Shown here one piece after another: positions 27,910-39,082 of a stretch of DNA of 64,000 bases; position 1 is the first letter of the stretch, and every line of letters starts with the position of its first letter. Source of the stretch: Powellomyces hirtus (Eukaryota; Chytridiomycota; Chytridiomycetes; Spizellomycetales; Powellomycetaceae); contig JAHLKG010000013.1 in the NCBI GenBank assembly GCA_025526995.1, forward strand, positions 62,001 through 126,000, written 5' to 3'. A model generated the notes under the pieces. The model was not told the origin of the DNA and searched no databases. It was given only the letters and a program-made list of their open reading frames with translations. A program made the translations under genes and the position numbers.

Positions 27910-30350
27910 ATGACCAACTTCAAGCGTCCTTGGGAAGAGGACGGTAGCAGCTTCTCAAATGTCGACCTCTCCCAAACAGGACCGGCTGAAACCAAAAAAG
28001 TCAAATTGGAGGGGGAAATTCCAGACACCGAGGTGGAGGGCAAAGATGATACTGGTAGAATGGAAGAAGTTCAGGGAGAACCTGAACCAAGCTCCGAGAC
28101 TGCAGGAGCCTCTTCCCTCAATAGTACCGGAGAGAACGGCCGTTTCCGCGTTCGCATAGATAACATGAACTCGTATGCCAACAGCAAAGAAATTCTAAAA
28201 CTCTGCAAGAAGCTCGAAATAAACAATGTTGAAAACTGCAAGAAGGCTCCGAAGTGGGAATACGCTTTCCTTATGTTTAAGGTAGTTATCATTTATGTCG
28301 CGAAGGTGTAACATCAGTAGGGACGTGAGGCACTTGCCCTCATGTGGTTGGAGAAGTACATTGTATATTACAAACGTTGCCTGTTACTAATATGAACGTC
28401 CGCTTTCGTTTTAGACTGAGGAAGACCGAACAGATGCGATCAAGAAACTCAACGGACAGGAGTACAAGAAAAAGATTTTGGAGGTTACGCACGCTAATGA
28501 GGTTCAGGTATGGGACTATCACCCTTTTTTTGTCCTCGAAGCCCATTGAGCTCACATGCGTCACAACAGCGTGCCGGAATGCAAGGCATGCAAGGAAGGG
28601 CTCAGCGTGACGTGGCTGCGGATGGAAAGGATGACGGCCGGACGCCGGCAGAAAGATTAGCGGACCAAATCACGCCACTGTGGAAAATATCCTACGAAGA
28701 TCAATTGAAGAAGAAGCGCAACGAGATGAGGAAAGCAATGGTCCAGTTCCGAGAAGCTTTGACGCGTTACTTCCCGAAGCGCTTCGATTGGAAGAATGCT
28801 ACTCCTCCGCCTGCGGATGCGCCAATTCTCGGAACCGAGGATTCTGAAGCCAAAGCAGTGCGGCAGCTGACCTGGCTTGGTCCTGCTTGCGGCTCCAACA
28901 AGGAGAAGCTGCCGTGTGAGCTGTTGGAAGTCATACCGTCACCGGCGGTGGACAACTACCGGAACAAATGCGAATTCACGTTTGGCTGGAACACGGCAGG
29001 GGAAAAAGTCGCTGGATTTTTGTGTGGATCATTCAAAGACGGTGTTATGACAATCATCGAGGCGAACGTTGCCAAAAACGTGTCTCCAGCGGGTGCAGAA
29101 ATTGCGAAGTCGTTAACCCAGTTTTTGCGAGACTCACCGTTGGAAATCTACGACCGAATCGCCAAGACAGGGTTCTGGCGAATGGCTCTTGTCCGCACGC
29201 ACCGGACAGGGGAAAACATGGTTGTGATGCAGTACAACCCAACCGGGGTCGATACCGAGACCATAGCAGCTGCCCACGATGCACTCCGCGCGCATTTCGA
29301 GCCCAAGAAGGACGAGGCCGGCGGTGTCACTACCCTGCTCGCCCAGGTTCACGATGGCAGTTTCAACGGACTACCGGAAGACGCACCTCTGCACATCATT
29401 TATGGGCCAGGAGTCGTATACGAAACTCTGTTGGGACTGCGCTTTCGAATCTCCCCAACGGCCTTCTTCCAAGTCAATACGGAAGCCACCGAAGTCTTGT
29501 ACTCCAAAGTCAGAGAATGGTGCGCTTTGGACGAAGTCACGGCGGAAAGAAGTCAGAAAGTACTCAAAGCTATCCCAGAGGGAAGAATGCCTACAAAGCC
29601 TGTCACTGCCGCTGTGCCCGCGGCCACGTTGGTGAGCGAGGGTGTAGATGCCGCTACCGTAGATGCAGTTGCTGCCGAGGGTGCTGCTGCGGCCGCTCCA
29701 ACAGACGATGGCGACAAGGCTGCTATAGTGGAGGTACTTCCTACGGAGCCTATCCCCCCGCATCCGAAAGATCTATCACCGCCGGGCACGATCCTGCTTG
29801 ACTTGTGCTGCGGAACTGGAACGATTGGTCTCACGATGGCGCCACACGTCAAAAAGGTCATTGGTGTCGACATGATCAAATTGGCCATCACGGACGCTAA
29901 ACACAACGTCGAGCTCAACGGTGGCGATCCGGAAGGCAAGATTATATACTACGCTGACAAAGTGGAGAAGGTGATTCGCGAAATTGTCCATGAGCACGTT
30001 GGCGTCAACGATGATGTGGTGGTCGTCCTGGATCCACCCCGATCCGGCGTCTACTACGATGTTATCAGAACGATACGAGCTTGCGAAGCAGTCAAGCGCG
30101 TCATCTACGTCGCCTGTGCCGCCAACCAAGCTGTTGGAAACTTTGTTGAGTGAGTATCCTACATCTACGGTGTTCAAATGTGTTGTTGGGAGTAACGCAC
30201 CGATGTTGACTTTTCTTTGTCTTTGATAGCTTGTGCCGACCGACATCCAACAAGTTCAAAGGTGATCCTTTCAAACCCCTCCGTGCACAACCGCTTGACC
30301 TGTTCCCGCACACCGAGCACTGTGAGCTTGTTGTAGAGTTCCGCAGATAG
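27910..30350 (+). CDS. TRM2: tRNA (uracil-5-)-methyltransferase, TRM2/TRMT2A type
   Basis: SAM-dependent enzyme that makes m5U54 in the tRNA T loop. Exons 27910-28281, 28415-28507, 28570-30149 and 30230-30350 give 721 residues. Residues about 78-155 are an RRM-like domain (FRVRIDNMNSYANSKEI, KWEYAFLMFK), as in animal TRMT2A. The methyltransferase shows the TRAM-less RlmD/TrmA core: YRNKCEFTFGW, ISPTAFFQVNTEA, the SAM loop LDLCCGTGTIG, LDPPRSGVYYDVI, a probable nucleophile Cys in IYVACAANQA, and the closing FPHTEHCELVVEF with the general-base Glu. About 65 residues of Ala/Pro/Glu-rich sequence (AVPAATLVSEGVDAATVDAV and onward) are inserted before the SAM loop. The motif around the Cys is ACAAN where relatives usually have SCNP. 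Confidence 0.94.
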
Positions 30351-30881: not shown

Positions 30882-33192
30882 TTATCCAGCACCCCACAGC
30901 AACCGTTCTCCGTCTGCGCGGATCCGTTTCAACATATCCAACCTCGGCATCGAATTCTATATCAACAAAAACAGAGTCCCAAATAAATAAAAGCCCGTTT
31001 TCACTTAACATCCCTCTCTCATCCCGCCATTCTCTCTTTCCCCCGCTTCTTACCTCAAACACAACCACAAGCTCCTCCTGATCCCTCACCACGACCGCGA
31101 GGTAGTACTTTACCGTCAACCGCGTGATGGCTTCATTAATGACCAAGCCCGCGACGTTGGTCAACGGGATGAACCGGGTTTGCGTTGTGTTGGTGTGCAG
31201 CGCGAGACCCAGGTTGCGGATGAACGTGACAGATTCGCTGTGCACGGCGCGCAGCCGGAGTGGGATATGGATGAGAGGGATGAGGAGGGGGCCGAAGGTG
31301 AGGATGGGAAGGGAGGGTGGCGCGGTGGAGAAATACTAACGTGCAATGCAAAATGAAAAAGATGTTAGGACAGGAGAGTAGGTGCGAGTCGATGGGAGGA
31401 ACGTACATGTACGACCGGGACAATGGTGCACAAGGCAGCCAGTACATCAGCGGCTAAATTTGTTCGAGACAATGGGGGAGCCCGACTGACGGTGAATCGA
31501 AGGATGCCCGGCCCCAGTGTCTGTTCGGATAAAATCAATCGCGGTTTCGGCGTTGGTGGCGAATCACAGAGTTCTGGGTGTTGATGTTGGTGTTGCTTCA
31601 ACTTGGGAAACGGCGGAGTGGGTGGTGATGGCTCATCACCCGTGCACTCTTCATTGGAAATCTCCGATACAGACCGTCGCCTTCTCCCACTCACATCGCG
31701 TTGTCCCGCCGCATCCCCAAACACGTCTCTCACACATCCGACTTTATCAAACACCTCCTCAAATCGATGGTACTCTACAAATTTCGCCAGCACGGCCGCA
31801 TTGACGATATAGAACACGGCTCCGGCCACCCACAGCTCTCGGAAGGTGTTCTGGCCGAGATGCTCGAGAGCGTAGGCTTGCGAAAGCCATAGCGCCTGAG
31901 CGCCAACCCATAGTGAGAGGAGAATGAGACCGCCTTTTTTGCGGTCGTTGGTGAAGCGGCTGCTAGGGAGAATGATGGGGAGGAAGCAGAGGTACCACAT
32001 AAAGTACTGTTGAGGCAAAAAGGGGGAGATAAAGTCAATCGGCACTCATGACAAGAAAATATGTCGAAAGACAGAAGTTCTCACTTACTTGCGAAGTGCA
32101 AACCTTGTTCAACATGACGAACGCAAACGTCTGCGCAAAGCACGCAAACACGACATCCTTTGCCAGCACAGCACCCAGAACCGTGACAAGTCCAAACTGC
32201 GGGAGAAAGGAGAGGAGGGAGGACATGGGCGAGGGGGCAGAGGCGGAGGAGAGATACATGTGGTAGAAATAGAGTGAGAAGTTGTGGCGATGGTCTTTGC
32301 GGGTGATGTGGTATAGGTAGGTTTCGTGCAGAAAGTCGGTGCCGTAACTGGGTCAGGCAGTGATTGGGCAGTCAGTAAGAATGGTAAAGAGTGGGGTTGG
32401 TGAGATGGATGGGGATGTGGTCACTTACAGATAGTACATTGCGCCGGTGAGGCCGAGGAAAACGGCCCCGCTCAGGAGCCCAAACTGGAGCCGCGCGCGG
32501 TTGAAAAATTCGCAGAAGGATGTCCATAGGGTGGCAGTGGTCAACGCGCTGCTACTTTTGGTCTTTCTGATAGCATCACGGAAGCTTTTTCGCCGCACGC
32601 CGGTTGCATCAGTCCGGCTGTCATTGGACACCAGCTGCTCCGGCCGCAATAGCAACCAAAACGGCAGGGCGTACACGATCGGAAAGATCTTAAAGTGCAC
32701 ACTCGTTCCAAACAGCACTGCTGCAACAAGCTGCTTCTTGGCTACCAACGCCCACAGCGTCGCCATCACCAACACCGACACCACGCTCTCCGCGTTGCCC
32801 CTGGTCGAAATCGCCACCACAAACGGGTTCAACATCCACACCGCCGCATATTTGGCCGCCCTACCTCCCTCCATCCCTCGCAAACACAAAACAGCGTAGA
32901 TAAACCACCCCGTCAACACATCACATACGCAAAACAGCACCTTGCCCCATAACGGGTGGACTGTTACGTTGGGGCCTACGAGCCACGCGAGAAGAGGTGT
33001 ATAGCGGTACGTTGCGCGCAGGTACGGTGAGGCGCCCGAGGAGACGTACCGCGCCCCGTCGGTGAAGACGAGATAGTCGACGTCCGTGAACTTGACTACG
33101 GGATGCCGATCTTGGATGGAGCCGTAAATGAGGAATGCGCCGTGGAAGAGGATGGAGAGGACGGTGACTAGGGGGAATGTGAAGCGTGGCAT
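30882..33192 (-). CDS. Fused GPI-anchor enzyme: PIG-M mannosyltransferase + PIG-H domain
   Basis: Exons 33192-32429, 32347-32089, 32006-31407, 31335-31054 and 30956-30882 keep one frame and give 659 residues. Residues 1 to about 426 are a full PIG-M (GPI14), the ER-lumenal enzyme that adds the first mannose. They show the DXD-type FTDVDY (Asp37, Asp39), FTDGARYV, SPYLRATYRYTPLLAW, HFKIFPIVYALPFWLLL, HITRKDHRHNFSLYFYHMYL and late membrane segments. A Ser/Pro/His-rich linker (about 427-496) leads to a complete PIG-H/GPI15 domain (about 497-659): membrane hairpin, then RNLGLALHTN, TRFIPLTNVAGLVINEAI, TVKYYLAVVVRDQEELVVVF, SMPRLDMLKRIR. PIG-H is a subunit of the GlcNAc transferase that starts the pathway. 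After Met344 there is no methionine until NSMPRLDM, 25 residues from the end, so PIG-H has no start of its own. Confidence 0.9.
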
Positions 33193-33522: not shown

Positions 33523-35252
33523 ATGCCCGTTGGTACGTTTCTTCGAGATCTATAGCCGTGACCAGCTCAATGCAAAGCCACTGACAGGAGTTAACTTCCC
33601 AACCAGACTACAGCAAATGGGACAAGCTGGAACTCAGCGACGACGAAGAATTTGAATGCCAGTAAGTCAAAATTACTCGGAGTCGTCATGAACGTTGTCC
33701 ATGGCGCTGACTTGCGGAATGGCTTTCTAGCCCAAATGTTGACAAGGCGTCCATGGTCCGATGGCGCCAAGCAGATATCCACAAAAAGCGACGGGAACGC
33801 AAAGACAAGCTCGCAGCACTCGCTCGCGAGACTGAAGTCAACACACGGGTCATCACTGCCCTCAAACAGATCACCGCGCCCTCCGAAGGCGAATCCCAAA
33901 TACGCCCACCGGTGCTACTCGGCAAACTGGGTGTCCTCCACCGCGACTGTCATACCTGGGTGGAAGACCTCAAAGAGCAGTACATGGCGTCTCTGTGGAA
34001 AGAGCGTGACGCACGGTGGGGTGAGCCGGACCCGGACCCGTTTGTGGAACAGCGACCGCCGTATGGGGATCTAGTGGAAGCTGTCATGCAGACCGTTGCG
34101 GGTGACGCGACCGCTGGGTCTGTGGAGGATGCGAAGAAAGCCCTGGAGGAGCCCACCTCGCGCGCGATTCATGTGATCAAGGAACGACAGCGCAAAGTTG
34201 ATGAGGAAGTAAAGAGGGAGAATGAAGAAGCGAACAAGAAACTGACGACAGATGATCTGAAGGAAGGGTTCAACAAGACTGTTGTTTCCAAGACGAAGAC
34301 GGACGATGCAGCGCAGGCCGCTGAGAAGCAGTCGCAAAAGGGGAAAGTGGTCGAAACCATCCATTCTCCAAAGGCGGGAGGCCTCACCACCGCCGCGACC
34401 ACTTCCTCCCAGCTAGCAGCAGCCAGCACCGATGACGATGAGGAGGCAGACCACATCACTTACGCACCCGCACAGCAGTTCTCGGAACTGGCCAACATGG
34501 ACGCTAGTTTTCAATTCATTGGCAAACACCCCGAACTCGTATCGCAGCACTATTCAGACATGATTCTTGCGGAAGGATTCCGAAAGGAACTCGACGCGCA
34601 GCCCAAGGCCGCGCAACGGTGTGTAACGCAGGCGCTTTTGCTTCAGTATTGTAGCTTGTTGGGACATGATGGCATATCGCTCTTCTTTGCAAGGTAAGGT
34701 GATCTACACGATCGGCGCGACATGTAGCATCTTGCTAACGACAACTCTCCCCGACCGCAGACTGCGATCTGGCAAACAAAACGCTACCGAGATGTTTAAC
34801 CGCGACGTGGTCGACACGTACAAACGCATCCACGAGCGCGTTAAAGTCATCAAATCCACCCAGAAACAAGAAGAAGAGGCCGAGCAGGCTGCGCTCCTCC
34901 AGCGTCTCCAAGCATGCACCCAACCAGACGGCACGCTTGCGCTTCCCATAAATGAGGAATCCACCGACGAGGAGAAGAAAAGGGCTGAAGTGTTTGCTAC
35001 GTTCCCTCACGACTTCCAACGTGAGTTTCCGATACGACATGGATTACCTGCTTCTGTATGTGTGCAGCGACTAACAAAAACGAAAACTTAGGCGCCCTGC
35101 TGATGTCGGATGTGGACGGTATCAATGCACACCTTTCGTCACTTTCGAAAGAAGATGGACAGAGGCTCGTCAAGATCTGCAATGAGGTGGGCCTGCTTTC
35201 ACTGGAGATGGACGAGGATGAAGAGGGTGAGGGTGCGGAGCAGACTCAGTGA
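33523..35252 (+). CDS. CDC37: Cdc37, Hsp90 co-chaperone for kinases
   Basis: Cdc37 delivers protein kinases to Hsp90 in the cytosol. Exons 33523-33532, 33607-33661, 33731-34693, 34761-35020 and 35092-35252 give 482 residues. The first exon is only 10 bases (MPV plus one base); splicing restores the invariant start MPVDYSKWDKLELSDDEEFE with the Ser of the SDDE casein-kinase-2 site. This is followed by CHPNVDKASMVRWRQADIH and the N-terminal kinase-binding coiled coil. The Hsp90-binding domain carries FIGKHPELVSQHYSDMILAEG, and the C-terminal domain ends in an acidic tail (MDEDEEGEGAEQTQ). The very short first exon is easy to miss but is required for the conserved N-terminus. Confidence 0.95.
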
Positions 35253-35468: not shown

Positions 35469-36428
35469 TCAATGGTGCAATTCAACTCTGCGTCCCGGTG
35501 CCCACTCGTCAGCAGCCTTCTTGATGTTGCGCCAGTATCGCAGCTGCGTCGCCAGGCGTTTCGCGGCCGGCAGGTCCTTTGCTCGAAAAGCTTCCGACAG
35601 CGCATTCAGTGTCTCGTTTAGCCGTGCTGCAAACAAAATTAGTTCCGCATACTTGATACGGAGCTGCGGCTGTTTGTTCATACCATCGTTCTGCTCCTTG
35701 ACCTTTTGAACTTCAGATTCTCGTGTCGCCTCCTCGAGACTCTCCCGCGCCTCCATGACATCCATCAGGAGCTCGGGATCAGCATCGTTGTCGTGTTCTT
35801 CTATCCTCTGGCCGTGCAGAGAGAGGAGGTAGTTGGCACGGGCGAGTGGGTCTCGGAGCGTTTGGTAGCCTTTGTTGATGAAAGAGGATTGCTGGTCTGC
35901 GCATAACTTCTCCGTCTATAAGACAAGGTCAGCAAAGATCTCTGGACGTGAGTGTAATTGAGGGATACATGCCTGAGAAGCCCGCGCAAACCCGTCGGGA
36001 TGCACTTTGGTCTGCAGCGACAGGAATCTCGCCCGCAACGCTCTGTTATCCACATCAAACGCAAACGGCACATCCTCAGCCGCAATCTCCGGCAGCAGCA
36101 CGTCGTGGTAGGTTGATTCGGAAAACGTGGGTTGGATCTTCCCTTTGGAACAGAACACGGCGGAGCGCGGCAGTGGTTCGTTGCAGTGCCAGCATCGACG
36201 AGAGCCGGAAGTGCCTGTTTTGTGAGTTGTAGAGGAGGAAGAGGAGAAGGAGGAGGTGGAGGTGGAGACGGGGCGGCGGAACGGTGACGTTGGAATTGCG
36301 AATGGGCGTGTTGGTAGTGGGAGGCGAGGCGGGCGGTTGATAGGTGTTGTGGTACATTTCGCACGGGTTCCTCCAACCATTAACCTGCATCGAGCTGCTG
36401 ATCTTCGTGGTATTCTTATACGGATCAT
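35469..36428 (-). CDS. HscB/Jac1, mitochondrial J-protein for iron-sulfur cluster transfer
   Basis: Works with the mitochondrial Hsp70 to release Fe-S clusters from the Isu scaffold. The start at 36428 gives a basic Arg/Ser/Thr-rich presequence (MIRIRIPRRSAARCRLMVGG). A zinc-finger-like CWHCNEPLPRSAVFCSKGK follows, which lacks the fourth Cys seen in many relatives. The J-domain has HPDGFARAS (HPD motif) spliced to EKLCADQQSSFINKGYQTL, then the C-terminal helical bundle ending LATQLRYWRNIKKAADEW. The first intron appears to use a GC donor (CAG/GC at 35972-35971) with a normal AG acceptor before 35915. A second likely intron, 35683-35627, is 57 bp and in frame; removing it joins QND to ARLNETL and gives about 281 residues. 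Confidence 0.9.
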
Positions 36429-36715
36429 GCCTGTGGTATGGTGTACGGCAAAGATGTGAAAGGAGGTTCGAATTCTTCCGATGTGTGAAATGTTCAAAAA
36501 TCACAATTGGGAAAGGCGACGTCATTTCCTTGCATTTTTGACGGTGTTTCATTTGCATTGACAGTATTGTAAAAAAAACGCGCATGGGATTGAACATTTA
36601 CATTTACAGTAGCACATCGTGGACCGCTCGGAGTGAAATAACCAGCATCGTACCCTATTATACCGCGTCGAAGTAAGCAGTCAAAGGTAACAGCTTCACT
36701 CCCGTTACGAAGGCC

Positions 36716-39082
36716 ATGCTCTCGTCTCGTGGGAACACCTCCACCACTCCTCTGTCTGCTTCAACGTCGTCGACCTCTTTGCGCAAAACACAGCCGCCGT
36801 TCCCGCTCGTTCGATCCAAAAGCTTTCTCTCGAGAGAAACCTCCTGCGATAATGCGCTTGATCTGTCGTATGGCAAAGGCCAGCGTCCGTTCAGCGCAGC
36901 ATTTATCGCCGCGTCTCAACGTGACGAACCCCGCGTCAACAATGTGTACCTCCAACGAAATGACCTGCAGCAGCTGCCGGACGAATTACGGCTGATGGTC
37001 AACACGACCTACCTTGATGTATCTTTCAACTCGCTCGCTTCATTTCCGGAAACCCTGTTTCACGCGCTTCCGGAACTCCGCTTCTTGGCCGCCCAGGATA
37101 ATGCGTTGAAAAGCGTGCCCGCGACACTTGCCGAGTGCTCGAGGCTGGAACATCTCATGCTGTTCAAGAACTGGATTGAGCACATCCCTGATGATCTATT
37201 TGAGTTTCTGCCTGAATTGAGGACTTTGGACTTGGCCGTGAACGAGCTGTGCGAACTACCGCAGCAACTTTTTCTCCACTGCGTGAAGCTGCGAGAACTC
37301 TTCCTCAGAAAGAACAGACTGCGTATCATCTCACCAAAGATTGGGAATCTGGTACATCTTACCCGTCTTATCTTGTCCGAAAATGCGCTGGAAACCATTC
37401 CGCAGGAAATCCGGCACCTCGCACGGCTGCAAGTTCTAGATCTGAGCTGCAACAAAATCAGTTTGATCCCCTCAGAGGCATTCGAAGGACTGCTGGTGTT
37501 GGAACATCTGGCGTTGAATGGGAATGAGATTCTGAATCTATCTGGGACATGCTTCAGTGGTCTCTCTGCGCTCCGGATCTTGAATCTTGAGCAAAACCCG
37601 TTAAGCGCCCTGCCTGCGGCTATTGGCACCTTGCCGTCTTTGGAAGAGCTATGGATTGATATCGATGACGACTCGCCCATCATATCTCCGCCTTTAGCTA
37701 TTTGCAGAAGAGGATTGGATGTGGTCAAACTTCATTTGCGCGAAAATGTCAAAAGCGGCAAGGATGTCGGTTGTTGGTCGATCCATGGTTTCCAAGATGG
37801 AGATCAGCTTGCTGTTGCTTTTGAACGGTCTTTCACCATCCAATGTCGAGAGACGGACATGCAATTCATTTCAGCTAGCAAGACAGCAAGCGCAGGCGTG
37901 ATGCTACCAACGGTTCTAATGGAGGAGCTGGACGGATCTGGAGTCCCGGCGCGATCGTACCCGCTTCACCCTTCGCCAGTTTCAGAGGATGGGTCATTCA
38001 CTGTGGTGTATAGTGCGAGGCAGAAGGGAGCACGTCGCATTCAATGTTGCATTGCGGGTGACGAAATCTCCGGCAGTGGAGCAACCGTGATCCTGCTGCC
38101 CCGCCCAGTCTCTCTCGAACACTGTATTTGTCAAGGCGACGCACTGGAGAAAGGGACGGCTGGAGCCATCACGACCTTCAAAATTCTGCCACGCGATGAA
38201 TTTGGGAATCTGTCGACCACATTCCCAGAGAAGAAACCGCCCGTTTGGCGCATACATCTTACCCGTGCAGCAGCAGGGATGAAGAAGTCCGGGTCATCCT
38301 TACACGACAACAGCCGTGCCTCTGTCCGCACAACCTCTGCCGCTGCCAGCGAGACATTCAAATGGGCCGTTACACCAAATGAGGACGGTTCGTACACGGG
38401 TCATTACAGCACTACGCTCGCCGGCCTGTACCGCCTTCGCGTAACGCTGAACGACACTCCCCTATCCATCCTTACTGCCAACACCACCTCTGCCATTGTA
38501 TGTGTCTCTCCAGGGCCCACCGCAGCGTCCCGTTCTACTGCGTCGCTAAACACCGAATTCCGGACCGTTGTTGGAGAGCGGATGGCGTTTACTGTCCGGG
38601 CACGAGATCGATTCGCGAATGACAGGCGGGAAGGTGGGGACCATGTTTTGGCGACACTGAGGAACGCGAATGGGACAGTGGAAGATTGTACTGTCGTTGA
38701 TACAGCGGACGGACAGTATACGGTCTCATGCACGCCGCGCACACCCGGGATCTCGCAACTGGAAGTCCGCATCCGCGCTTCTGCGCAAGAAAGCATATCG
38801 GGCCACAGAGATATCCACGGCTCTCCGATATCATTAAACGTCCTCCCCGCTCCTCGCAGCAGAAGCGATTATGACAATGCTGCAGCTACCATCACCCATT
38901 TGGAAATGGAACTGGTGCGTGTCAACAAACTGTGCACCGACCTAAACCAGCAACTTCATTTGCACACTGCTGGCGCGATATCAAGGGTGGCGGGAACCAA
39001 TACGGTTGCGGCGCGCTTGGGAGCTGGTAGACAGGCAGTGGACGACGTTGGGGCATACTTGTCGATGAATGACACGATATAA
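36716..39082 (+). CDS. Leucine-rich-repeat protein with filamin-type repeats
   Basis: Intronless 788-residue frame. Residues about 75-330 hold about ten LRRs of the SHOC2-like plain type (LPELRTLDLAVNELCELP, LHRL-type spacing, LARLQVLDLSCNKISLIPSE). After a spacer, residues about 340-740 show beta-rich segments with filamin/ABP280 hallmarks: DEFGN, DGSYTGHYSTTLAGLYRLRV, ARDRFANDRREGGDHV, TADGQYTVSCTPRTPGI and ISGHRDIHGSPISLNVLP. The end carries a short coiled coil (THLEMELVRVNKLCTDLNQQL). No signal peptide or membrane segment, so it is likely cytosolic. LRR-filamin chimeras occur in protists and zoosporic lineages; a scaffold role is inference. The start is the first ATG of the frame. Confidence 0.85.
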   Translation: MLSSRGNTSTTPLSASTSSTSLRKTQPPFPLVRSKSFLSRETSCDNALDLSYGKGQRPFSAAFIAASQRDEPRVNNVYLQRNDLQQLPDELRLMVNTTYLDVSFNSLASFPETLFHALPELRFLAAQDNALKSVPATLAECSRLEHLMLFKNWIEHIPDDLFEFLPELRTLDLAVNELCELPQQLFLHCVKLRELFLRKNRLRIISPKIGNLVHLTRLILSENALETIPQEIRHLARLQVLDLSCNKISLIPSEAFEGLLVLEHLALNGNEILNLSGTCFSGLSALRILNLEQNPLSALPAAIGTLPSLEELWIDIDDDSPIISPPLAICRRGLDVVKLHLRENVKSGKDVGCWSIHGFQDGDQLAVAFERSFTIQCRETDMQFISASKTASAGVMLPTVLMEELDGSGVPARSYPLHPSPVSEDGSFTVVYSARQKGARRIQCCIAGDEISGSGATVILLPRPVSLEHCICQGDALEKGTAGAITTFKILPRDEFGNLSTTFPEKKPPVWRIHLTRAAAGMKKSGSSLHDNSRASVRTTSAAASETFKWAVTPNEDGSYTGHYSTTLAGLYRLRVTLNDTPLSILTANTTSAIVCVSPGPTAASRSTASLNTEFRTVVGERMAFTVRARDRFANDRREGGDHVLATLRNANGTVEDCTVVDTADGQYTVSCTPRTPGISQLEVRIRASAQESISGHRDIHGSPISLNVLPAPRSRSDYDNAAATITHLEMELVRVNKLCTDLNQQLHLHTAGAISRVAGTNTVAARLGAGRQAVDDVGAYLSMNDTI

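What the first reader, a model, noticed from the sequence alone, without database searches (positions are those of the whole stretch)
30882..33192. PIG-M and PIG-H fused into one GPI-anchor biosynthesis protein
Seen: one reading frame with five exons runs from a full PIG-M (TDVDY, HITRKDHRHNFS) through a Ser/Pro/His linker to a full PIG-H (membrane hairpin, VINEAI, VKYYLAVVV, SMPRLDMLKR). No stop lies between them. There is no Met from residue 344 until 25 residues before the end, so PIG-H cannot start on its own. Known: PIG-M adds the first mannose on the lumenal side, while PIG-H belongs to the GlcNAc-transferase complex that begins the pathway on the cytosolic side. Inference: the fusion couples an early cytosolic and a later lumenal step, or fixes their ratio. 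I know of no described PIG-M/PIG-H fusion.
Basis: partly seen in the sequence, partly recalled or inferred. Interest (0 to 1): 0.88.

Follow-up and report, generated by a model that had tools for sequence, protein, structure and literature searches.

The report
Conserved PIG-M/PIG-H fusion in chytrid fungi
In one order of chytrid fungi, two proteins that act at different steps and on opposite sides of the membrane in building the lipid anchor of cell-surface proteins are encoded as a single protein, which suggests that the two steps are physically linked.

Summary
A five-exon minus-strand gene (33192-30882) encodes one 659-residue protein: complete PIG-M, a linker of about 60 residues, complete PIG-H. 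The join lies inside one exon, and no start Met is left before PIG-H. No other PIG-M or PIG-H was found in the genome. NCBI holds the identical protein from Powellomyces hirtus. It is not unique to this genome: 7 of the 120 PIG-M relatives listed carry both Pfam domains, from six species of Spizellomycetales, and form one clade (100/97) among 38 PIG-Ms; the 10 PIG-Ms of other chytrids in that tree carry no PIG-H. So it is one retained fusion, not an artefact. Topology permits it: solved Gpi14 has both termini in the cytoplasm, so linker and PIG-H can be cytosolic while catalysis stays lumenal. Most likely the polypeptide tethers GPI-mannosyltransferase I to the GPI-GlcNAc transferase complex. 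That coupling is inferred; no RNA or interaction data were available. A lead without a positive control: ARV1, a transferase subunit tied to delivery of the intermediate to PIG-M, was not found. The held-paper searches showed no description of the fusion.

The parts
30882..33192 (-). whole fusion gene, CDS in five exons, 659 aa
   Evidence: identical NCBI protein P0001
32429..33192 (-). exon 1: PIG-M N-terminal part with the DxD motif (TDVDY, residues 36-40)
32089..32347 (-). exon 2: PIG-M middle part (HITRKDHRHNFS)
31407..32006 (-). exon 3: PIG-M C-terminal part, linker and PIG-H N-terminal part in one exon
31719..32006 (-). end of PIG-M including a C-terminal tail motif that some unfused fungal PIG-Ms also have (residues to about 437)
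31539..31718 (-). linker, about residues 438-497, modelled with pLDDT mostly under 50
   Evidence: borders set by eye
31407..31538 (-). PIG-H N-terminal motif and first membrane stretch (residues 498-541)
31054..31335 (-). exon 4: second membrane stretch and core of PIG-H (VINEAI)
30882..30956 (-). exon 5: PIG-H C-terminal end (MPRLDMLKR) and stop; 3 of 7 fusion models include this part
31689..31694 (-). GTGAGT donor-like site inside the linker: a possible alternative splice site

Best explanation
The gene makes one polypeptide of the endoplasmic reticulum membrane: PIG-M (Gpi14, catalytic subunit of GPI-mannosyltransferase I), a flexible cytosolic linker of about 60 residues, and PIG-H (Gpi15, subunit of GPI-GlcNAc transferase). 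Shown: gene structure, both complete domains, no second copy found, one origin, presence in six species of Spizellomycetales. Supported by a solved relative: the C-terminus of PIG-M faces the cytosol, the side where the transferase works. Inferred: PIG-H still assembles with PIG-A and PIG-Q, so PIG-M is tethered at about 1:1 to the complex that starts the pathway. The first sugar transfer and the first lumenal one are then held in one ER patch, where the intermediate (deacetylated, flipped, acylated) meets the mannosyltransferase, and supply and use are matched. It is not direct channelling, as several steps lie between.
For: Gene and domains. Same architecture in 7 of 120 listed PIG-M relatives (567-670 aa) from Powellomyces, Geranomyces (3 proteins), Fimicolochytrium, Spizellomyces and Phlyctochytrium; one clade 100/97 in a 38-row tree. 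PIG-M keeps a tail motif (7 of 7 fusions) found also in 3 of 31 unfused PIG-Ms of the tree, and PIG-H keeps an N-terminal motif in 6 of 7. No Met in the 40 residues before the PIG-H motif in 6 of 7; the seventh has one at the far edge. Linker identity to P. hirtus 19-29% with length changes, PIG-M 59-69%, PIG-H 32-46%. No second PIG-M or PIG-H found. PIG-A, PIG-C, PIG-Q, PIG-P, DPM2 and PIG-X found at other loci, so both complexes can form. Gpi14: both termini cytoplasmic (PMC12653191, passages). Human PIGH binds PIGQ and, in an AlphaFold3 model, PIGA (PMC12182360, passages).
Against: No transcript, protein or interaction data; the DNA of the other five species was not seen. A GTGAGT donor-like site lies in the linker, so transcripts without the join are possible. 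GC3 of the linker (0.47) is below that of the flanking domains (0.72, 0.70), so codon-level constraint is not visible there. Search by the PIG-H part alone found only the P. hirtus protein; the other six came from the PIG-M side. 4 of 7 models lack the last PIG-H part, probably intron read-through in annotation. Mets do occur inside the PIG-H part of the other six proteins. PIG-H is modelled with low confidence. The T. brucei transferase pull-down paper (PMC7971885) holds neither GPI14 nor PIGM in its main text, and the human ARV1 paper (PMC12182360) holds no PIGM, so a general association of the two complexes has no support there. The two steps are not consecutive.
Confidence: 0.57

Rival explanations
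1. Passive fusion: the two genes were joined once by loss of a stop and spacer; both halves work independently in one chain and nothing is gained beyond joint expression.
For: Both domains are complete and separated by a variable linker of low model confidence, so independent folding is plausible; a single origin could be drift. PIG-M is not mentioned as a partner in two papers on the transferase complex.
Against: Kept across six species with PIG-M identity down to 59%; no listed protein named from the order is unfused (rows without a name cannot be judged); fusion forces a 1:1 ratio on subunits of two complexes.
Confidence: 0.25
2. Made as one but used as two: proteolysis in the linker, or alternative splicing from the donor-like site in the linker, gives separate PIG-M and PIG-H.
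For: GTGAGT at 31694 in the linker; linker has low model confidence.
Against: No Met in the 40 residues before the PIG-H motif in 6 of 7 proteins, and in P. hirtus none from residue 345 up to 638; linker sequence is poorly conserved; the records of six species give one chain.
Confidence: 0.12
3. Gene-model artefact: two neighbouring genes merged by annotation or by an assembly error.
For: No RNA evidence here; the linker has lower GC3.
Against: In this genome the join lies inside one exon; the same joined protein in records of six species; no start Met before PIG-H.
Confidence: 0.03
4. The PIG-H half has left the GlcNAc transferase and now serves only to hold or stabilise PIG-M.
For: Fused PIG-H is less conserved than PIG-M.
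Against: No other PIG-H was found in the genome while PIG-A, -Q, -C, -P remain; PIGH is essential for the transferase in mammals (PMC7125958, passages); PIG-X is present.
Confidence: 0.03

Closest known systems
PIG-M / Gpi14 (GPI-mannosyltransferase I catalytic subunit, GT-C; Pfam PF05007)
   Same: Full-length match, DxD motif, best structural match Candida glabrata Gpi14 9wno_A; a PIG-X match lies elsewhere in the genome
   Different: Carries a linker and a whole PIG-H after its C-terminal tail
PIG-H / Gpi15 (GPI-GlcNAc transferase subunit; Pfam PF10181)
   Same: Complete Pfam match and two hydrophobic stretches before it; two unnamed stand-alone models stop at the same place as models that lack the last exon, as if an intron there is shared
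   Different: No start codon of its own; C-terminal part of PIG-M in these six species
DPM2 and ARV1 as links between early GPI steps and mannosylation
   Same: DPM2 is a regulatory subunit of the transferase and, as recalled, of Dol-P-Man synthase; ARV1 is a transferase subunit via PIGQ, and yeast arv1 mutants accumulate the acceptor of PIG-M
   Different: Those are separate proteins; here the link is covalent

Membership tests
PIG-M (PF05007) | Pfam model over curated cut-off | tested here: met
   268 bits against 23.4, residues 128-417, 1-258 of 259 positions; 7 of 7 fusion proteins match at E 0.001
PIG-M (PF05007) | DxD motif (D37, D39) | tested here: met
   Invariant columns in the 38 aligned PIG-Ms
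PIG-M (PF05007) | GT-C fold like Gpi14 | tested here: met
   Model matches 9wno_A, E 3.6e-21, TMt 0.79
PIG-M (PF05007) | 12 membrane helices with cytosolic ends | tested here: inconclusive
   Simple hydropathy finds 9 candidates in the PIG-M part; 12 in the solved relative
PIG-M (PF05007) | mannosyltransferase I activity | not testable with these tools
   needs yeast gpi14 complementation
PIG-H (PF10181) | Pfam model over curated cut-off | tested here: met
   58.3 bits against 25, whole model; 7 of 7 fusion proteins match at E 0.001
PIG-H (PF10181) | membrane hairpin before the domain | tested here: met
   Hydrophobic stretches 525-543 and 549-567; two helices in a low-confidence part of the model
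PIG-H (PF10181) | separate small protein with its own start | tested here: not met
PIG-H (PF10181) | subunit of GPI-GlcNAc transferase | not testable with these tools
   PIG-A, DPM2, PIG-Q, PIG-C, PIG-P matches present; association needs pull-down

The most novel reading that the evidence does not exclude
In Spizellomycetales the fusion builds a standing supercomplex of GPI-GlcNAc transferase and mannosyltransferase I, and takes over the bridging or delivery task that ARV1 has in yeast and mammals. ARV1 was not found in this genome by three approaches (no positive control). If so, the order shows that ARV1's GPI task is to bring the intermediate to PIG-M, and that it can be replaced by a covalent tether.
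Probability: 0.1. Interest if true: 0.87.

Novelty: new variant of a known kind. Interest (0 to 1): 0.63.

Why it matters
How early GPI intermediates made on the cytosolic face reach the lumenal mannosyltransferase is open (the flipping step is listed as unknown in PMC7125958, passages). A fusion with one origin, kept in six species of an order, predicts that the starting complex and mannosyltransferase I lie side by side, perhaps also where they are separate proteins. That can be tested in yeast and human cells by proximity labelling or co-purification of PIG-M with PIG-H and PIG-A. The fusion may also serve as a marker of the order.

Tried and rejected
Search by the PIG-H part against long proteins found only the protein itself among 1522 candidates; taken alone it would have said 'unique', but one search showed six more fusions, so only shows the limits of word-based search for PIG-H.

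Search for stand-alone relatives of the PIG-H part gave 6 of 393 candidates; two bear an organism name (Lentithecium, Pestalotiopsis; ascomycetes as recalled). No named chytrid stand-alone PIG-H was seen, so whether other chytrid orders carry PIG-H separately was not tested.

No solved PIG-H was found by sequence; one search gave three PIG-M chains and one weak match with no apparent meaning. The AlphaFold model is good for PIG-M and poor for PIG-H. In alignment A4 the N-termini of stand-alone PIG-Hs were misplaced, and the alignment used for the model (A3) probably has the same fault, so no conclusion on the PIG-H fold is drawn.

ARV1: the Pfam model, a typed consensus of its N-terminal domain and a degenerate DNA pattern for its YRH motif (two matches; stops lie near both and no ARV1 context shows, by eye) found nothing. 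No eukaryote with known ARV1 could be searched as a control, so absence is not shown. ARV1 is also dispensable for growth in yeast at 25 C (PMC7971885, passages), and its loss in human cells did not lower surface GPI proteins (PMC12182360, passages), so a loss might need no replacement.

Considered and dropped: replacement of PIG-X by PIG-H (a PIG-X match is present). P0042 (PIG-M with PF04719) looked like another fusion; not followed.

Rows left out: the tree used 38 of the 120 listed proteins, chosen by me for spread with all 7 fusions kept; the fold alignment A3 used 45 proteins, 40 and 5 of the 6.

Full report
What is there. On the minus strand a gene of five exons (33192-32429, 32347-32089, 32006-31407, 31335-31054, 30956-30882) with four GT-AG introns encodes 659 residues. 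Pfam finds Mannosyl_trans (PIG-M) at residues 128-417 with 1.5e-79 and PIG-H at 576-635 with 6.3e-16, both over the curated cut-offs. The window lies on contig C13 (800407 bases) of a 29.26 Mb genome. NCBI holds a 659-residue protein from Powellomyces hirtus on a contig of that length, letter for letter the same as the model.

Is the join real? The join lies inside exon 3. Its frame is open, while over residues 426-497 the other two frames have 3 and 6 stops. Openness of 72 codons has a 4% chance by base composition, so the stronger evidence is comparative. Of the 120 PIG-M relatives listed (of 2086 found), 7 carry both PF05007 and PF10181 in the precomputed column: Powellomyces hirtus, Geranomyces variabilis (two), G. 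michiganensis, Spizellomyces sp. 'palustris', Fimicolochytrium jonesii and Phlyctochytrium arcticum. My own scan confirmed both domains in 7 of 7. Powellomyces, Fimicolochytrium, Geranomyces and Spizellomyces belong to Spizellomycetales in the NCBI taxonomy. NCBI puts P. arcticum in Chytridiales, but a 2025 ITS2 study treats it as a synonym of Triparticalcar arcticum and places it within Spizellomycetales (PMC11762872, passages), and my tree places it with Spizellomyces. The DNA of these other species was not available here.

One origin. In a maximum-likelihood tree of 38 PIG-M parts (chosen from the list, all 7 fusions included) the fusions are one side of a branch with support 100/97, in all of 200 bootstrap trees. 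The 10 chytrid PIG-Ms from outside the order in that tree (Quaeritorhiza, two Batrachochytrium, Polyrhizophydium, Podochytrium, Chytriomyces, Rhizoclosmatium, Obelidium, Zopfochytrium, Chytridiales sp. JEL0842) carry no PIG-H domain in the listing.

Both parts are complete. All 7 fused PIG-Ms keep a tail motif after the last membrane stretch, H-x-[FY]-E-x-[VIL] followed by G-x-[VI]-[RK]; it is found in 3 of the 31 unfused PIG-Ms of the tree (Basidiobolus, Halteromyces, Paraglomus) and in looser form in 7 of 31, but in none of the ten other chytrids. The PIG-H part starts with [LF]-x-L-x-E-x-x-x-G-x-G-x-x-x-F-x-V in 6 of 7 (P. arcticum departs), which by eye resembles the N-terminus of stand-alone PIG-Hs. 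There is no Met in the 40 residues before that motif in 6 of 7; the seventh has one at the far edge of the 40. Mets do lie further in, within PIG-H, in the other proteins; in P. hirtus the first is residue 638. Linkers are 57-83 residues as cut (this includes the PIG-M tail), 25-37% Ser+Pro+Thr, and 19-29% identical to that of P. hirtus, against 59-69% for PIG-M and 32-46% for PIG-H. Between the two G. variabilis proteins 56 of 73 linker columns are equal.

Weak points. 3 of 7 models contain the last PIG-H part; the other 4 end soon after VVFEV, which reads like a model running into the last intron (inference). The linker's GC3 (0.47) is lower than in PIG-M (0.72) and PIG-H (0.70); this would fit former spacer DNA but does not show constraint. 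A GTGAGT site at 31694 could be used for alternative splicing. No RNA data were at hand. The fold model has mean pLDDT 74; PIG-M is good, linker and PIG-H poor.

Genome context. PIG-H and PIG-M models match nowhere else in the genome at E 0.001, and a typed human PIG-H rings only at this locus, weakly, at E 0.026. PIG-X (C11), PIG-A (C7), DPM2 (C1), PIG-Q (C22), PIG-C (C16) and PIG-P (C23, with a weaker second match on C9 under the cut-off) are found at other loci. Both complexes can therefore be formed, with the fusion as the shared chain. PIG-L, PIG-W and PIG-Y were not searched.

How it may work. The cryo-EM structure of Candida glabrata Gpi14-Pbn1 shows 12 membrane helices with both ends in the cytoplasm and the DxD motif towards the lumen (PMC12653191, passages). 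The model of the fusion matches that chain best (9wno_A, E 3.6e-21). So a PIG-H hung on the C-terminus of PIG-M starts on the cytosolic side, where the GlcNAc transferase works. [quoted passage not shown] I infer that PIG-M is held near that place at about 1:1. Deacetylation, flipping and acylation lie between the two steps (PMC7125958, passages), so what is gained is nearness and matched amounts, not direct hand-over. Against a general association: the T. brucei pull-down paper holds neither GPI14 nor PIGM in its main text, and the human ARV1 paper holds no PIGM.

The ARV1 lead. ARV1 co-purifies with the transferase in Trypanosoma brucei (PMC7971885, passages) and is called its eighth component in human cells (PMC12182360, passages). 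Yeast without ARV1 accumulates GlcN-(acyl)PI, the acceptor of PIG-M (PMC7125958, passages; the original paper is not held). ARV1 thus already links the two steps. In this genome ARV1 was not found by its Pfam model, a typed consensus or a motif pattern, while PIG-X, PIG-P and DPM2 were found by their Pfam models. Without a positive control this is a lead only.

Comparison with what is known. The parts are ordinary PIG-M and PIG-H. Searches of the held papers that bear on the fusion (listings, with passages of the papers named above) showed no description of it; most subscription papers are not held. The protein records exist in NCBI under names such as 'PIG-M-domain-containing protein'. I file it as a new variant of a known kind: a domain architecture of one lineage.

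Noticed in passing
genome G000 (no place): ARV1 not found by three approaches although other GPI transferase subunits were; no positive control.
   Followed up: partly
window 33711-34694 (+): CDC37-like Hsp90 co-chaperone frame (Pfam CDC37_N and CDC37_M), divergent from the fusion gene; by eye its start lies about 330 bases from that of the fusion.
   Followed up: no
window 28501-30150 (+): tRNA (uracil-5-)-methyltransferase-like frame, convergent with the fusion gene.
   Followed up: no
window 35472-35915 (-): Frame with the HSCB C-terminal domain (iron-sulfur co-chaperone, as recalled).
   Followed up: no
window 36677-39079 (+): Open frame joining leucine-rich repeats with filamin repeats; the pairing was not examined.
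   Followed up: no
P0042 (Entomortierella lignicola, partial): PIG-M with a PF04719 (TAFII28, as recalled) domain in one listed protein; perhaps merged gene models.
   Followed up: no
P0010-P0013, P0003, P0005 C-termini: Several PIG-H models, fused and stand-alone, stop soon after VVF[EP]V, as if the last intron there is conserved and often missed by annotation.
   Followed up: partly
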